From NCBI GenBank assembly GCA_030247885.1, contig JAPDRO010000008.1, positions 806,001 through 870,000 on the forward strand: 64,000 nucleotides of DNA. Reading direction: 5' to 3'. Numbering within the stretch: position 1 is the stretch's first letter; each line of letters begins with the position of its first letter. Below the pieces are notes generated by a model. That model had not been told where the DNA came from. It ran no database searches and was given only the letters and a program-made list of their open reading frames with translations. A program made the translations under genes and the position numbers. Positions 5,189 through 58,730 of this stretch are shown here, piece after piece. Origin of the DNA: Taxawa tesnikishii (nom. ined.). Lineage: Eukaryota; Ascomycota; Dothideomycetes; Dothideales.

Positions 5189-5707
5189 ATTTGATGAATT
5201 AAATTGCGCATCATGGAAAATATGTCGCTTGTTTCGAGAGAAGCCCACTGCTAGGTCGAAATACCCTGCGGCGCGAACTCCTGTCCAGGCTTTTCCACAC
5301 CCGGCCCGCTTCGCTAGTAGTATACGGTGGACCGTTCCCACCATTGCTGCGGGATCTAGCAAAAGTCGAGCGTAGTCGAACTGACCAAGCTCTAGCCATG
5401 AGTGACCTGTACAGGACCTGAGTCCAAGTCGTTCCCCACTACACTCATGCTGCAACTTGCGTGTAGGCTTCTGCCGTTTAAAGATCATTCCTTTCACGTC
5501 GTCTCTAAGAGAGGAGTGCGAGGCGGTATACTTGCTAATATAAGAGACTTTTCCCGAAAGTTGATGCTACGGTGCGAAGGTGCAACCTATGGTAGAACAT
5601 ACGCGAATGCTTCATGACAGCTTCGGGTGTGTTTACTGTGGAAAGCGTTGGTCTTGTAAATCTTCTGTGCAGGCAAATCATTTCTCATTGAGTGGCAGCC
5701 TAGTTGG
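5189..5707. other. Intergenic, no gene recognised
   Basis: About 520 bp between the tRNA 5' side and the dehydrogenase stop codon. Short ORFs are present on both strands, none supported by motifs. It presumably holds the 3' UTR of the dehydrogenase gene. Confidence 0.6.
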
Positions 5708-51867: not shown

Positions 51868-53087
51868 ATGGACACCATCACCGGCCTGATTGACACCACC
51901 GTTGTCCGCCGCAACAACATCTTCTACCTTAGGGGTTCCCTGGCAGATGGAGACGCCCTTTACGCTCTTATGAAGATTCAGCCCGTCCACAGAAGACCTG
52001 TCGTGGTCGAACCGGCGGTCCGCCCATCACATCCAGTGACCGCCCGGCTACAGCCTCCTCGCTCAAGAGGCAAGAAAACGACGGCAGTTCCAACACCACC
52101 GCCATCCGAGGAAAGTACACCATTCTTTGGCGCACCAGCTGCAGAGCAGGCAGCATGCGAGAGCAGCTTCTCCAACGGAGGAGCATTGCCCGGCCCTCCA
52201 CGCACCGCCGCCCATCAAAGCACCGTCCAAGACGGTGCTAGCAAGGTGGATACCGCCTACTACGAAATAGCCCGGTCTGAGGACGAGGGCCTCTCAGACA
52301 ACGTCCTGACCCCGGAGATTGCAAATCCCCCAGCCCAAACTGCGGGTCCGGAACGCTCGCAGCCCCCACGCCGCCCCGCTCTTCCCAGGCCTCTAGGGGC
52401 AGTACACTCACTGTCAGCAACGCCTCGCCGCCCCATAGCGCAGTATCACGGACAAACGAGCAGCGTCCAGAGCGTCTTGCCTCGATGCTGCTCGCCGGTC
52501 AGCCGCGCATCGCGGTCAAGGAGCAGGTCGAGGAGTGGGTCGCGGAGCAGCACACCCTGCTCCAAGATCCTACCTCCGCTCTTGAAGACCTGCCTTGTGA
52601 TCGCAACCTAAACGACCTCTCGGGCGCCGTCGAGGACTACCAGCATGCCGCCCCTTCTGGCCGCCCGAACATCCTGTGCGAAGAAGCCGACCAGCAATGC
52701 CTCATCTGCCTGGAACAGCTTTCGTACACCGACGACCAGGACCTGCAATCCCAAGAACGAGAACGGGAACGACCGGGTCCCGTGGCGTGCGAGCGGTGCA
52801 AGCAGTCCTTCTGCGCGGAGTGCATTGGCGCGTGGCTGGAGCAGGATCTGACGTGTCCGCACTGCAGATTCGAGCTTCTGGATGACGAGGTAAAGGAACT
52901 CGACCACCCGTGCGGCGATAAGGAATGCCCACAGTGCGACGGGAAGTGCTTCAGCGACTTTGGCAACTGTGACCGAGAACACGAGGAAGGTTGTTGGGGT
53001 ATGCTTTGCTGGCTGTTGCGATGCAGTCCTGAGACGAAAACGGAGGATGCGGAGGTGATGTGGTTGGCGGTGGAAAAACAGGTATGA
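51868..53087 (+). CDS. RING-type zinc-finger protein (atypical), with an apparent frameshift
   Basis: The first frame starts MDTITGLIDTTVVRRNNIFY and runs through a Pro/Ser-rich linker. The second frame has SMLLAGQPRIAVKEQVEEW and then the RING finger QQCLICLEQLSYTDDQ...VACERCKQSFCAECIGAW...DLTCPHCRFELL, spread over about 60 residues. A Cys-rich tail follows: CGDKECPQCDGKCFSDFGNC. In the RING the third Cys is followed by KQSFC, so Gln sits where His normally binds zinc, while an extra CERC pair lies just before. The frames differ by net -1 and overlap between 52485 and 52611, so a single-base deletion probably lies upstream of 52480. Likely an E3 ubiquitin ligase of about 406 aa; substrates are unknown. 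The start is the first Met followed by a folded-looking sequence; the frame stays open further upstream. Confidence 0.65.
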
Positions 53088-53489: not shown

Positions 53490-56400
53490 TCAAAGTTCAT
53501 CCCTGACCACGCTGGTAGCGGAGCTAGCAGCACTGCTCACCGAGCTCGCAACATCTTGTGCCGCATCCTTAACATTATCGAACGTCTCACCTGCCGCCTG
53601 GCTCGCGCTAGCACCAAACTCAGCCATCCGGCTGCTCGCGCTGGCCATGACAGCACTGATCCTGCTCTGCGCGCTCTCCATAGCGCCGTGCTCTGGACCG
53701 TAGATAGCGCTGCTGACGGCCGAGCTGACGGAGGCATAGGTATCCGCTACCTGGGAACCTGCAACATCAAGATTGTCCGCAGCGACGGAAGAGATGGAGC
53801 TGTACGCACTTGCGACGCTGTTCGTGGCTGTCTCGACGGTGCTAGTGGGAGTGCCGAAGAGGGCTTCGCTAATGGCTTGCTGGGCGGACGCGGCGGCACC
53901 GGACATAGAACTCTGTGCCGCTTCAGCGTAACCGACTGGGATGCCATAGACAGCCTCGCTAGCACGGGATGCAGCATCGCTGTATGCGCTGGCGGCTGCC
54001 GAGGAAGCCTGCTCGTAAGAGCCCTTGGTTGTGCCGTAGAATTGCGAGCTAGCTGCGTCAACTGCAGCGTTCATCTGCTCGGAAATGTTGTCTAGGATAG
54101 CCTCAATCGTCGCTGGTGGGGTGAAAACGGATGACACGACAGATGAGGCGGACGAGTACGCGTCGGCGGCGTAGCTGGAGGCGCTGGAAACAATAGCCGG
54201 AGCGCCGGTCGAGTAAGCGGATTGAAGACGGCTCATGACGCTGTCGGTGAAGTCAGGCTCACGTCCACTGATGACCTCTGCGAAGAGGCCGGCAACTGCA
54301 GCGTACTGAGCAGCCGCAGCAGCAGTGGCTTGAGCGGCGTAATCACCGGCTTGAGACATAGCCGACTCGTGCCATGGGGTCGGGGCACCATAGACCTGCT
54401 CGCTGGCGCGGGAGACAAGCGCTTCCCAGTTTTCACTTGCTTGGGAAGCCACAGCCTCGGTCCAAGGGGTCTCAGATCCGATGACAGCGGTGCTGGCAGC
54501 GCTAGCCGCGGACTCGAGAGGACCGGTCGAGGTGCCAAAAGCCGCTACGCTGGCCTTGATGGAGGCAGCAGAGAGAGAAGCAGACGCCGCTGAGACCGCT
54601 GCATTATACGACGAAGAGATGGAGTCGATGACGTCCTCGGTGGGGGATTTGGTGGTTGCGCCCACGACCGAGCTAGCGGATGAGAGAAGCTCCTGCATGT
54701 TGGACGATGCGGCAGCAACGGCTCCACTGTATTGGCTCTGAGCAGCAGCGAGATAGTTCTGGTAAGCCGGGGTTTGAGTGCCGTAGATGACTTCACTGGC
54801 CTTTGACGATGCCGATGCAAGCGAGGCGGAAGCTGCGGAGGCGGCTGAGCTATACTGACTCGAGGCGCTGTCGAGGACACTCTGCGCAGGCGACTCGGTG
54901 GTCCCACTGACTACAGACTGAGCTGAAGACATGACGGCATCCAGGTTGCCGGATGCGGCAGCAATGGCGGCAGCGTACTGACTCTTTGCCGCAGACAACA
55001 CACTGAGGTATGCTGGGGTCGAGGTTCCGTACACCGCCTCGCTTGCTTTAGATGAAGCAAGCTCAAGAGAGACGGATGCTGCAGAAACCGCTGCCACGTA
55101 CTGGCTTGAGGCACTGTCAGCTACGCTCTGTGCAGCTGGTGCGGTCGTAGCACCGACGGCTGAGCTTGCCGAAGCGAGAACGTTGCCCATGTTGCTCGAA
55201 GCAACAGACACCGCAGCGCTATATTGACTCTGGGCCGCAGAGAGCAGGCTCGCGTACGCAGGCGTCGGAGCAGGGAGATAGCACTCGATGCAGCTGCCAT
55301 GAATGAAGAGTAGCGGTCGTGCGCCATTCCAATTCCGGCGTAGTACCTCTGCTGCGCATCCGCCAGGTATTTCTGGTGCACCGGGGTTGGCTCAACGCCA
55401 ACAGCAATCTTGGCGCTGCTGTACTGCGCAGAGGCAGCGCTGAGCCCTTCGGCAAGTCTGGACGAGGCAATAGAGGAGATGGACTCCATAGCTCCCTGTG
55501 TCGGTGTCTGGAATATGCTTGCAGCCGAGTAACTGTAGCTTGCAAGCTTCTCGCTGGCAGCTGCTAAGGAATCTGAGTATGCCGACTCGACTGAAGCCAT
55601 CATTTGCTCGTGTACAGGCTGTGGGGTACCGGAGACCTGTGCAGAGATGCGAGACTTTGCAAGCGCGTAGTGAGACGAAGCCATGCTAACAGCTTCGTTG
55701 TAGCGTGAGCTGGCGCCGGCGGCAAGTCCGTCTCCAGTGCTAGTTGCCTGCGATGTAAGTGAGGAGGCAGCTGAGCCAAGCTTCGCGTTGAGAGAAGATG
55801 CCGCTGAGCTGGCCTGAGATGCCATAGAGGCAGTGGCAGGTTGTGGTCGGCCATAGATCGCACTCGACGCACTGGAAAAGTTAGATTGCAAAAGAACATG
55901 ATTGATGAACTGACTTACGCTGAAACTGCTTGGGAGTAACGCTCGCTTGCCACCCTTGCCATACTCTCCGGCATGGTCTCTTCATCCTCGAAAAACATGG
56001 AACTCGCCGCCTCAATGGCCTTCAGGTATTGTTCGTTGGCATATGAGCTGGCGGCCTGTGCCTTTCCCTGAGTAGTAGTCGGCTTGATTGCATCCTGGAC
56101 AGCTTGAGTCAGTACGCTCGCCTGGTCGCCAGCCTTGCTGACGATGGACTGGATCTTCGCCGAGTAAGTCTCGTCCTGATCGTCGACGATGTCATCATCC
56201 AGAACAATGGAGTGTGCAACAGGGATAGCCTGTGCCATCGCACCGCCCCAGACCTTCTTCGACGCCTTCTCAGCGACACTTGAAGAGCTGGAGCCCGGAA
56301 CGGCTTCCGAAACAACGGAAGCAACCGAGGACAGACTCGACGAGGCATCCGATGCGACTGATTCAATCATTGGTGCCGGAGTACCCTTGATGGATGCGGC

Positions 56401-56800
56401 TACCTGGTCCTTGTTCTGGTTGGCGGCAGACAGCACGCTTTCGACAGCTGGGGTTTCGCCGCCAATGACAGCTTCCGACACTTTGGTAGCAGCTTGTTCG
56501 GCAACGCCTGGCTCGGAGCCCACTACGGACTTGGAAGCTTCTGATGCTGCACTCTCAATAAAGCCAGGATGAGTTCCGACAACCTTCTTCGAAACTTCGG
56601 AAGCGGCGCTTTCAATGGAACCGGTCGAAGTGCCCAGGATTCTTTCAGAGGCCTTGGAAGCTGCGCTCTCGATGTTGCCAGTCCCAGTACCGATGATGTT
56701 CTCGGAAGCTTTCGAAGCCGCGCTTTCAACAGAGAAGGTCGCTTCAGCGGCCGCCTCAGATGCACCAGAGGCGATGTTGGCAGCTTTGGACGAGGCAATG
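53490..56800 (-). repeat. Coding tandem repeats, Ala/Ser-rich
   Basis: Two repeat classes inside the giant membrane protein. Towards the N-terminal side are short units of about 20-25 residues (SIESAASKASERILGTSTG type). The C-terminal side has longer units of about 75-90 residues, containing a YG(T/A)xTPA(Y/W) motif and SAASSQYxxAVSAAS blocks. Units vary in sequence, so they are old rather than recently amplified. Confidence 0.8.
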
Positions 56801-58730
56801 GAGGACAAAGACTCAGCTGAGCCTCGAGTAGTTCCGGCAACCGCCTCACTTGCATCGGAAACCTTGTTAACTACCTGTTGCTTGGCCCTGGCGGCGGCAG
56901 CAGGCACGTATTTGGTGTTGAAATCGTCCGATGCATCCCGTGCCTCAATCTTCCACTGTCCGACCTTCTTAAGTCTAGCAAGCTCCTGTGCTGATTCCTC
57001 CGCGATGCTCATGGCTTGTTCCTCGATGTCGGACGCGGCTTTCTTCGCCTCCGTCAAGCGCTCGTTCTTGGATGCGACCGCCTCGACATCGTTACGCCAC
57101 TGACTGGAAGTCTTCTTAAGCTCGTTGTATTTGGACCAGTCCTTATGCGTGATTCCTTCATTTGACGCCCAACGTCTTCCGATGTCCTGCAGGCGAAGGT
57201 CCTGGATGTTGTCGATAGTTTCGAGAGTGGAATTGGCAGCTGCATCTACAAGGGCAATAGTTTCCTTGTCGTATCCCTGCTTCCATTCACGCACACTCTG
57301 AGCTTTACTCTTGATGGTTTGGCCACCCTCACGGACGTCGCTGGCGAAGTGGTCTTGTACCGAGGCGACAAGCTCGCTGGAGGCGTCCTCCGGAAGACTC
57401 TCCACGGCTGACAAGATCCTGGACTTCAAGGTCTTGAAAACAGATTGCGAAGATTCCTCGAGCCGGATGATCAACGCCTTTCCGACTCCATTGACCTGGT
57501 GCTCAAGTTGCTTGTCGCAGATGTCCTGGACGCGCTCGCGAAGGTGATCGGAGCCCTCCTGTACGGCCTTCGCAACCTGCTCCTCCCAGAGCTTGAGGTC
57601 ATCGGCAAACTGCTCGGCCGCAGTCTGCTCAGTTTCGCTGGGTTCTGCTGACTGAGCTGAAGAAGTGCTGCCGGCAGCATCTGCGGTAGTGGAGCCGACT
57701 AATGAGCTCGCAATGGAAGATGAGAGCGAGGATACACTGGAAGAGACAGAGGACGCGGATGCAGACGCAGAAGATGCCTTGGACGAGGCTGCAATAGATT
57801 CAACAGCAGCCTCGAGCTTCTTTTCGTCCTTGTAACGTCCGAGTCGTTGGGTGATCTTCATAACCTGCGGTTCAACATTCTCGCCATACAGGATCTGTAT
57901 TCTTGGCCATATTTGGCGGCTGACGAAAGACCAAGTCAGGTTTGCACCCCAATGAGCGTATGGCAAGCCGGTGTTAACAGTGAAGGCATGCAGCTGGTGA
58001 TATGTACGCTGAGCGTAAGGGGCGGCAAACTTGTATGCAGGACGTATCTCAAGCTCATAGAAGTCGATGGCAGAGTTTTTGAGGTTGGTGTAGTATGGTT
58101 CCACAGCTACCCAGACCTTCTGCACATGAGGTGCCAGGTGAGCGTCGTATTGCTTCAGCCCTTCTAGTCTGGCCTTCTCGAATTGAGGTCGGACAGTCTT
58201 CTCCCACTGTGTTTGCCCATATTGTTGAGCCTGAGCAACGCGGTGGGCACCATGTTTCGAATAGTTCTCTTTGGTGAAGGCAAGTGCAGGGTCGTAAGCC
58301 CGAGTCTTAACACGGTCGACGTATGGCTGGGCCTTCTCGACATAAGGTGTCACATAAGGCGCTACGTAGGTATGGTAATATGGTTCCACGTATGGGATAG
58401 CTTGCGTCTTGAATTCGAGGTATGGCTTGCAAATCTTGGGTAAGTCGTCGGTGATTTCGGATTGGGAGGAAGGACAACGGAAGGCTGTGGTGATGATGGT
58501 ATACCAGACAAGAAGTCTACGAATGTTAGCATACGAGATACCTGCGTGGGCAGATGCACTTGCCTGACAACGATTCCCATCAGCCAGCTCACGAAACCCT
58601 GTCTTCTCCGACCCGGTGCTGCACGGGATAGTTTTGGAGCCAGACCGCCATCAAGCTGGCCGTTCAGACCGCCGTTTGGCTGTGATTGCTGCTTCTTCCC
58701 CTTGGCTCGACCATTCGCCTTGGCCGCCAT
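53490..58730 (-). CDS. Giant Ala/Ser-repeat single-pass membrane protein ('hoxa13-like' of Pezizomycotina), with C-terminal RDEL
   Basis: Exons 58730-58564, 58516-55919 and 55871-53490, about 1715 aa. The start MAAKANGRAKGKKQQSQPNG leads to a membrane helix, GFVSWLMGIVVRLLVWYTII, formed across the first intron. That intron is GC-AG (GCAAGT donor). A luminal domain follows: EPYYHTYVAPYVTPYVEKAQ, ENYSKHGAHRVAQAQQYGQ and WPRIQILYGENVEPQVMKI. The rest is Ala/Ser-rich helical repeats, each with a variant of YGTSTPAY or GTSTGSIESAASKASE. The C-terminus is VVRDEL, a KDEL/HDEL-type ER-retention signal. Proteins of this layout are usually database-labelled 'transcription factor hoxa13', but nothing here is a homeodomain. 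A net -1 shift occurs at about 55271-55280, in a repeat junction. Function is unknown; an ER-lumen or perinuclear structural role is inference. Confidence 0.8.

What the first reader, a model, noticed from the sequence alone, without database searches (positions are those of the whole stretch)
53490..58730. Giant membrane-anchored Ala/Ser repeat protein with an ER-retention RDEL tail
The family is normally mislabelled as a hoxa13 transcription factor. Here an N-terminal TM helix, a conserved Tyr/His-rich luminal-looking domain, about 1100 residues of helical repeats and a terminal RDEL point to a resident of the ER lumen. It shares its promoter region with the ER ligase DOA10. No function is described; a luminal scaffold or spacer is possible.
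Basis: partly seen in the sequence, partly recalled or inferred. Interest (0 to 1): 0.75.

Follow-up and report, generated by a model that had tools for sequence, protein, structure and literature searches.

The report
RDEL-tailed Ala/Ser-repeat ER-lumen protein
A fungal gene encodes a very long protein that is probably kept inside the endoplasmic reticulum by an RDEL tail; it may be an enlarged relative of a little-studied yeast protein (She10), and three other, different ER-type proteins of the same fungus carry a similar kind of tail.

Summary
The gene is real: minus strand, 58730 to 53490, two 47-nt introns, basic N-terminus, one hydrophobic segment, a Tyr/His-rich domain, about 1,105 residues of Ala/Ser-rich repeats, and RDEL at the end. 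RDEL looks like a working ER signal here: it ends frames matching UGGT, glucosidase II beta, an Hsp70 and a DnaJ protein of the same genome. No Pfam family fits; no homeobox. The best family lead is yeast She10/Osw7 (compared with a recalled, unverified sequence); She10 is reported in ER membrane preparations. Unexpectedly, three other genes of this genome (a secreted-type agmatinase, an Ish1/Msc1-like protein, a stand-alone repeat protein) carry Ala/Ser helical tails ending KDEL, KEEL and RDEL. Those three tails are homologous to each other; the window's tail resembles them only in composition and helix period. Most likely a luminal ER/nuclear-envelope resident whose tail acts as a LEA-like shield or filler; the function is inferred.

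The parts
58564..58730 (-). Exon 1: start codon, basic N-terminus (net +9 over 45 aa) and first half of the hydrophobic segment
58517..58563 (-). Intron 1, 47 nt, GC-AG type (donor AG|GCAAGT, branch-like GCTAAC, end TAG)
   Evidence: boundaries inferred from sequence, no transcript data
55919..58516 (-). Exon 2: second half of the hydrophobic segment, Tyr/His-rich domain (aa 87-296), Ser-rich linker, mid domain (about aa 355-630), then 314 aa of Ala/Ser repeats with a 19-residue unit
55872..55918 (-). Intron 2, 47 nt, GTAAGT...CTAAC...CAG
   Evidence: inferred from sequence
55283..55871 (-). Exon 3 up to the frame change: 196 aa of Ala/Ser repeats
55271..55285 (-). Approximate place of the single frame change, judged from the repeat register; error, allele or real lesion not decided
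53490..55277 (-). RDEL-side frame: 595 aa of Ala/Ser repeats (41/82-residue spacing, three adjacent 82-aa copies at its start), ending SVVRDEL stop
53490..53504 (-). RDEL retrieval-type signal plus stop codon
59679..61208 (+). Divergent neighbour: first long ORF of DOA10 (RING-variant E3 ligase of the ER); about 950 bp between the two starts

Best explanation
A resident of the ER/nuclear-envelope lumen built on a She10-like core. Steps: (1) the hydrophobic segment near the N-terminus sends the chain into the ER, basic end outside, everything after it in the lumen (inferred from sequence); (2) the Tyr/His-rich domain and the mid domain form the core (shown as sequence; fold unknown); (3) about 1,100 residues of low-charge, weakly amphipathic helix, in the best-ordered part broken at G-T-x-T-P loops every 41 residues, fill the lumen or lie on its membrane (helix period shown; binding inferred); (4) molecules that leak to the Golgi are brought back by an Erd2-type receptor through RDEL (RDEL is found on other ER proteins of this genome; not shown for this one). 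Most likely role: a LEA-like shield or space-filler that keeps luminal proteins and membranes apart under heat, drying or folding stress, perhaps with a part in wall-precursor assembly as for She10/Osw7. My estimates: luminal residence 0.8; She10 relative 0.6; LEA-like shield 0.3.
For: RDEL ends frames matching UGGT (Glyco_transf_24 E 7.8e-150), glucosidase II beta (PRKCSH_1 E 4.6e-31), Hsp70 (4.8e-34) and a DnaJ protein with the Cys-rich centre (1.1e-15) in the same genome; ERD2-family matches are present. 14 of 44 other [KHR]DEL-stop sites end an open frame of at least 150 aa, against 1 of 21 control sites (13 [QNS]DEL, 8 DEF; Fisher P 0.025). Topology by flank charge. One paper lists She10 among proteins enriched in a yeast ER membrane preparation and 'falsely annotated as non-ER', and in the same passage notes evidence for ER location of Msc1 (PMC11021466, one passage). 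Hydrophobic moment peaks at 96-98 degrees in all three A/S pieces, peak z 4.2 to 11.3 over shuffles. RDEL-side frame under selection: pS 0.71-0.80, pN 0.23-0.31 in three pairs. Three other genes with signal-peptide-like starts have the same design.
Against: One frame break in the assembly. The mid domain alone does not align significantly with the recalled She10 (z 2.3; a shuffle reached 77 against 68); BLASTP E falls from 9e-4 to 0.18 when low-complexity filtering is on, phmmer E 0.31, and the She10 letters are unverified. The authors of PMC3744438 treat Osw7/She10, for their predicted signal peptides and mutant walls, as candidates to act directly in the dityrosine layer (passage), which would fit a secreted and not an ER-resident protein; as recalled, She10 does not end in an HDEL-type signal. 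The A/S tail is not homologous to the three other tails by score (363 against L072, but 375 reversed; no match to them). As bare DNA the RDEL-stop pattern is no commoner than its reversed control (31 against 30). No Pfam LEA match; best Apolipoprotein match E 0.31, far below cut-off. Both AlphaFold models are poor (mean pLDDT 42 and 39).
Confidence: 0.55

Rival explanations
1. It is chiefly a wall-assembly factor of the She10/Osw7 kind: a protein of the secretory route that helps make or export enzymes or precursors of the spore or hyphal wall; the A/S tail is only a lineage-specific extension.
For: osw7 she10 double mutants lack or have reduced dityrosine and show intermediate permeability of the spore wall (PMC3744438 and PMC5753156, passages); collinearity with recalled She10.
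Against: Homology rests on a recalled sequence; a dityrosine wall is not known to me from filamentous ascomycetes (recalled); the tail makes up about two thirds of the protein.
Confidence: 0.2
2. It is a luminal spacer or tether: anchored in one membrane, the long helical tail sets the width of ER sheets or of the nuclear-envelope lumen.
For: Length and helical period; an Ish1/Msc1-like protein has a similar tail, and yeast Msc1, of the Ish1 family, lies at the nuclear periphery (PMC11253511, passages).
Against: Similar tails on an agmatinase and on a stand-alone repeat protein, both with signal-peptide-like starts, argue for a general luminal filler.
Confidence: 0.15
3. The gene is broken in this strain, so most of the last repeats and RDEL are not made.
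For: One frame change with no good bridging intron.
Against: The RDEL-side frame is open for 633 codons and its copies show strong purifying selection; a lesion, if real, must be recent.
Confidence: 0.12
4. It is mitochondrial or secreted, and RDEL is accidental.
For: The N-terminus is basic with a single acidic residue before the hydrophobic segment, as in some mitochondrial proteins.
Against: RDEL on several ER proteins of the same genome; composition gives RDEL at a given end with chance about 9e-7 to 7e-6.
Confidence: 0.05

Closest known systems
Saccharomyces cerevisiae She10 / Osw7 (YGL228W / YFR039C)
   Same: N-terminal hydrophobic targeting segment soon followed by Cys, then a Tyr/Lys/Pro-containing stretch, then a helical region opening with D-x-x-x-W; collinear BLASTP alignment over aa 51-572 without low-complexity filter (She10 letters recalled). 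She10 reported in an ER membrane preparation (PMC11021466, passage).
   Different: No 1,100-residue Ala/Ser tail and no [KHR]DEL end in the recalled She10; only 19% identity; support modest and unverified. Osw7 itself was not compared.
KDEL/HDEL/RDEL-tailed ER residents (UGGT, glucosidase II beta, PDI-type proteins)
   Same: C-terminal RDEL; the same signal on several of them in this genome. RDEL is retained and binds the vertebrate receptor like KDEL and HDEL (PMC8248988, passages).
   Different: No enzyme or chaperone domain found; long low-complexity helical tail; possible membrane anchor.
Group 3 LEA proteins / apolipoprotein-type 11-mer amphipathic helices (features recalled)
   Same: Lag-11 self-similarity in two of three pieces and moment peak near 98 degrees; Ala-rich.
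   Different: Few charges (46 acidic and 14 basic in 595 residues), Ser-rich, no Pfam LEA match and no apolipoprotein match above cut-off, probably luminal.
Ala/Ser tails of L072, L071 (agmatinase-like) and L080 (Ish1/Msc1-like) in the same genome
   Same: Signal-peptide-like start, Ala/Ser-rich tail, helix period, [KR][DE]EL end.
   Different: Those three are homologous to each other (z 14.6 to 40.0); the window's tail is not shown to be, has 41/82 spacing instead of 29, and Ala+Ser 38-47% against 54-62%.

Membership tests
[KHR]DEL-retrieved ER residents | C-terminal [KHR]DEL immediately before the stop codon | tested here: met
   RDEL; in the frame downstream of the break
[KHR]DEL-retrieved ER residents | ER targeting so that the C-terminus is luminal | tested here: inconclusive
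   Hydrophobic segment aa 46-68, flank charge +9 before and 0 after: predicts it, but Arg at 56 and no signal predictor or experiment
[KHR]DEL-retrieved ER residents | Retrieval shown by location, or by loss of ER location on removal of the signal | not testable with these tools
   needs an experiment
[KHR]DEL-retrieved ER residents | Signal conserved in orthologues | not testable with these tools
   no orthologue reached; genome has no relatives held
She10/Osw7 family | Sequence homology over the core | tested here: inconclusive
   whole z 10.8, N part z 7.0, mid part z 2.3; BLASTP 9e-4 unfiltered, 0.18 filtered; She10 letters recalled; no Pfam family matched
She10/Osw7 family | Role in outer spore wall | not testable with these tools
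   literature passages only
Group 3 LEA / 11-mer amphipathic helix proteins | 11-residue repeat of amphipathic helix | tested here: inconclusive
   lag 11 z 6.3 in the 595-aa piece, 2.7 in exon 3, not among the top ten lags in the exon-2 tail; moment peak 96-98 degrees but 100 degrees almost as high
Group 3 LEA / 11-mer amphipathic helix proteins | Match to a LEA family profile | tested here: not met
   Pfam at E<=10 (HMMER filters drop most matches above 0.1)
hoxa13-type transcription factor | Homeobox domain | tested here: not met
   none in any of the four pieces

The most novel reading that the evidence does not exclude
Some fungi append a class of low-charge Ala/Ser amphipathic-helix tails, closed by a [KR][DE]EL retrieval signal, to quite different proteins of the ER lumen (a She10-like protein, an Ish1/Msc1-like nuclear-envelope protein, a secreted-type agmatinase, and a stand-alone version), forming a LEA-like protective filler special to the ER lumen; in the She10-like gene the tail arose separately and converged on the same design.
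Probability: 0.3. Interest if true: 0.7.

Novelty: new variant of a known kind. Interest (0 to 1): 0.5.

Why it matters
ER-lumen proteins with long low-complexity helical tails are little known; LEA-type protection is, as far as I recall, mostly described for other compartments. A luminal set of such tails, each with a retrieval-type end, would make the question 'how does the ER lumen of fungi survive drying, heat or crowding' testable by simple deletions.

Tried and rejected
Orthologue hunts: the search for related loci with 483 aa of the core in viral contigs (no pattern match) and genome contigs (29 pattern matches, none confirmed by tblastn); a degenerate pattern for YGENVEPQ in both (0 and 0). 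Conservation therefore stays open. PDB by sequence for exon 2: one hit, mL77, E 0.011, taken as chance. Two AlphaFold runs on single sequences gave mean pLDDT 42 and 39, so no fold search was made. BLOC1_2 match E 0.075, under its cut-off: rejected. An intron across the frame change: 151 passing pairs listed, none convincing. Homology of the window's tail with L072/L071/L080: not supported (z 0.3 to 4.8 for the nine pairs, reversed copies score as high or nearly so in most). More Ala/Ser tails among [KR]EEL ends: one search gave 27 sites; one is L080; 21 frames from 20 loci were read and none is A/S-rich; 5 were not read. Programmed frameshift: considered, not tested. Transcription factor: rejected.

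Limits of counts: of 109 matches of the mixed pattern only the first 100 were listed; I read 65 sites with a true stop, four of them on C34 taken (sites on late C33 and C34 ending in TAG, or with N or Q, may be missing; K and H were completed). The window's own site is not among the 44. Some of the 14 long frames may not be genes (for example L027). Pfam was run on 20 of the 65 frames (17 [KHR]DEL, 3 controls): 8 of 17 hit families of ER or secretory proteins, 1 of 17 a DUF, 8 of 17 nothing; controls 0 of 3. L033 and L035 were scanned as L071 and L072. L016 was not scanned. The comparison of 3 of 15 [KHR]DEL frames of at least 150 aa being A/S-rich (window's own included) with 0 of 30 other window frames of at least 200 aa has P 0.03; it is post hoc and most of those window frames are not known to be coding.
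Full report
WHAT IS THERE. The gene lies on the minus strand from the ATG at 58730 to the stop at 53490. Two 47-nt introns are clear from the sequence: 58563-58517 (a GC-AG intron with donor AG|GCAAGT and a GCTAAC branch-like site) and 55918-55872 (GTAAGT...CTAAC...CAG). The product has a basic N-terminus (net charge +9 over 45 residues), a hydrophobic segment at aa 46-68 with an Arg at position 56, a Tyr/His-rich stretch aa 87-296 (21 Tyr and 8 His in 210 residues), a mid region and then three stretches of Ala/Ser repeats of 314, 196 and 595 residues. The last residues are SVVRDEL. The neighbour across about 950 bp, divergently oriented, is DOA10. The Tyr-rich domain occurs once in the genome.

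THE FRAME BREAK. Exon 3's frame runs past the repeat region into a stop at ...HQLHRA, giving 1,171 aa. The frame that ends in RDEL is open from 55391 (633 codons). The repeat register puts the change at about 55,285-55,271. I listed GT-AG and GC-AG pairs of about 37-136 nt with donors in 55420-55100 that would join the two frames without a stop: 151 pass, none with a GTRAGT donor; the nearest are four with a GC donor GCAAGC at 55169, two of which hold a CTGAC motif, but they would keep over 30 residues of non-repeat sequence. Three adjacent 82-residue copies in the RDEL frame differ at 71-80% of synonymous but only 23-31% of nonsynonymous sites (three pairs), so that frame was translated and selected for a long time. 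The break is therefore an assembly error or a recent lesion; I cannot decide which.

IS RDEL A SIGNAL HERE? As bare DNA the pattern is no commoner than its reversed control (31 against 30 in the 29.4-Mb genome; four of the 31 read SDEL and one RDEF). In context it is different. I read 65 other sites: 14 of 44 [KHR]DEL sites end an open frame of at least 150 aa, against 1 of 13 [QNS]DEL and 0 of 8 DEF sites (Fisher P 0.025). Pfam identifies RDEL-ended frames as UGGT (L018), glucosidase II beta (L013), an Hsp70 (L010; ER Lhs1/Hyou1 type inferred), a DnaJ protein with the Cys-rich centre (L031; Scj1 type inferred) and an alpha-galactosidase (L034); HDEL-ended frames as a PDIA6-like protein (L066), a thioredoxin-domain protein (L052) and a GH63 glucosidase (L025). 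L006 ends like BiP (recalled; its 62-aa frame had no Pfam hit). A frame with DUF7924 ends in KDEL (L015), not obviously an ER protein, and 8 of the 17 [KHR]DEL frames scanned had no hit. ERD2-family matches are present at two places. In vertebrate cells RDEL is retained and binds the receptor like KDEL (PMC8248988, passages). So RDEL is very probably used as an ER tail by this fungus.

TOPOLOGY. Positive charge before the hydrophobic segment and none net after it predicts that the rest is luminal. The central Arg leaves a short hydrophobic core (LLVWYTIITTAF), so a cleaved signal is as possible as an anchor. There are four N-glycosylation sequons in the two pieces together.

WHAT FAMILY? Pfam gives nothing above cut-off, and the collections open to me gave no relative. 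From memory I suspected yeast She10. The unfiltered alignment starts at the hydrophobic segment and keeps order to aa 572 at 19% identity. This is a lead, not proof. Its independent support is biological: a yeast ER-membrane preparation enriched She10, which the authors call falsely annotated as non-ER (PMC11021466, one passage). She10 and its paralogue Osw7 are needed for the dityrosine layer and full impermeability of the spore wall (PMC3744438, PMC5753156, passages); the first of these papers regards them as candidates to act in the wall layer itself, which speaks for secretion.

THE ALA/SER TAIL. In the 595-aa piece self-identity peaks at lags 82, 41 and 11 (z 11.2, 6.6, 6.3); in the exon-2 tail at 19 (z 8.1); in exon 3 lag 11 reaches z 2.7. 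The hydrophobic moment peaks at 96-98 degrees in all three pieces, the alpha-helical range and near 11/3, though 100 degrees is nearly as high. The tail is low in charge (46 acidic, 14 basic in 595). Its three pieces are related to each other, clearly for two of three pairs (z 10.2 and 15.7; the third 3.5). The single-sequence AlphaFold model has no confidence (pLDDT 39) but draws, in its first 250 residues, helices of 34-37 residues with short breaks.

AN UNEXPECTED SET. The scan for [KHR]DEL ends turned up two further Ala/Ser-rich proteins, and a search with one of them a third. L072 (C13): start MRFATSAAIIAAALSTAAG, then 11-residue-based repeats (YDSARAATDSAYASAYSAYDKA...) to ATQAIRDEL, 553 aa from the ATG at 5204. 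L071 (C12): an arginase-family (agmatinase-like) gene, PF00491 E 8.6e-65, with an upstream exon starting MRFQVVALLQTALCGVAVAHS (that it belongs to the same gene is inferred) and a last exon that continues in frame into an Ala/Ser tail ending ATESVKDEL. L080 (C1): an Ish1/Msc1-like gene (PF10281 E 4.7e-44; the only place with that domain in the genome search, five matches), start MRFNFANALVLALAADSVVASS, Ala/Ser tail ending DRVKEEL. L080 was found by repeat similarity and not by its end, so its KEEL is an independent observation; [KR]EEL ends elsewhere in the genome rarely close a long frame (1 of 21 frames read has 150 aa or more). The three tails are homologous to each other (z 14.6, 17.1, 40.0). 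The window's tail is not shown to be related to them: its score with L072, 363, is below that of its reversed copy, 375, and genome searches with it found only itself. What it shares is Ala/Ser richness, helix period (96-98 degrees in all), an ER-type N-terminus and a [KR][DE]EL end. Convergence on one design is the fair reading.

MECHANISM. I think the protein is a luminal ER/nuclear-envelope resident retrieved by RDEL, whose core may act like She10 and whose tail acts as a weakly amphipathic, LEA-like shield or filler. Shown: gene structure, the end signal and its presence on ER proteins of this genome, helix period, selection on the RDEL frame. Inferred: topology, retrieval of this protein, kinship to She10, and the function.

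NOVELTY AND VERDICT. RDEL residents and She10 are known kinds. I did not see a 1,100-residue Ala/Ser tail on such a core, or a set of such tailed ER proteins, in the listings of the ten paper searches made; these were narrow, and subscription papers are mostly not held. Interest 0.5.

Noticed in passing
L071 4582-6787 (G000:C12): Agmatinase-like (arginase family) gene with a signal-peptide-like first exon whose last exon carries an in-frame Ala/Ser 11-mer tail ending KDEL: a candidate ER-resident ureohydrolase.
   Followed up: partly
L080 about 6324-4187, minus strand (G000:C1): Ish1/Msc1-like gene, the only one found in this genome, with a signal-peptide-like start, five Ish1 matches and an Ala/Ser tail ending KEEL.
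   Followed up: partly
L072 5204-6865 (G000:C13): Stand-alone Ala/Ser repeat protein with a signal-peptide-like start and RDEL end.
   Followed up: partly
L018, L013, L010, L031, L066, L052, L025 (G000): UGGT, glucosidase II beta, an Hsp70 and a DnaJ protein end in RDEL, while two PDI-type proteins and a GH63 glucosidase end in HDEL: a possible split of signals by kind of protein.
   Followed up: no
L015 and L016 (G000:C2): Two similar 521-aa frames, both ending RKDEL; the one scanned holds DUF7924.
   Followed up: no
L003 (C20) and L004/L005 (C34): Two places matching the ERD2 receptor family; possibly two receptors with different signal preference.
   Followed up: no
window 52485-53087, +: Part of a RING-type gene next to the finding's 3' end; matches RING families just below Pfam cut-offs.
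   Followed up: no
window 58517-58563, -: GC-AG intron splitting the hydrophobic segment; gene finders that allow only GT-AG would mis-predict the N-terminus and lose the ER targeting segment.
   Followed up: no
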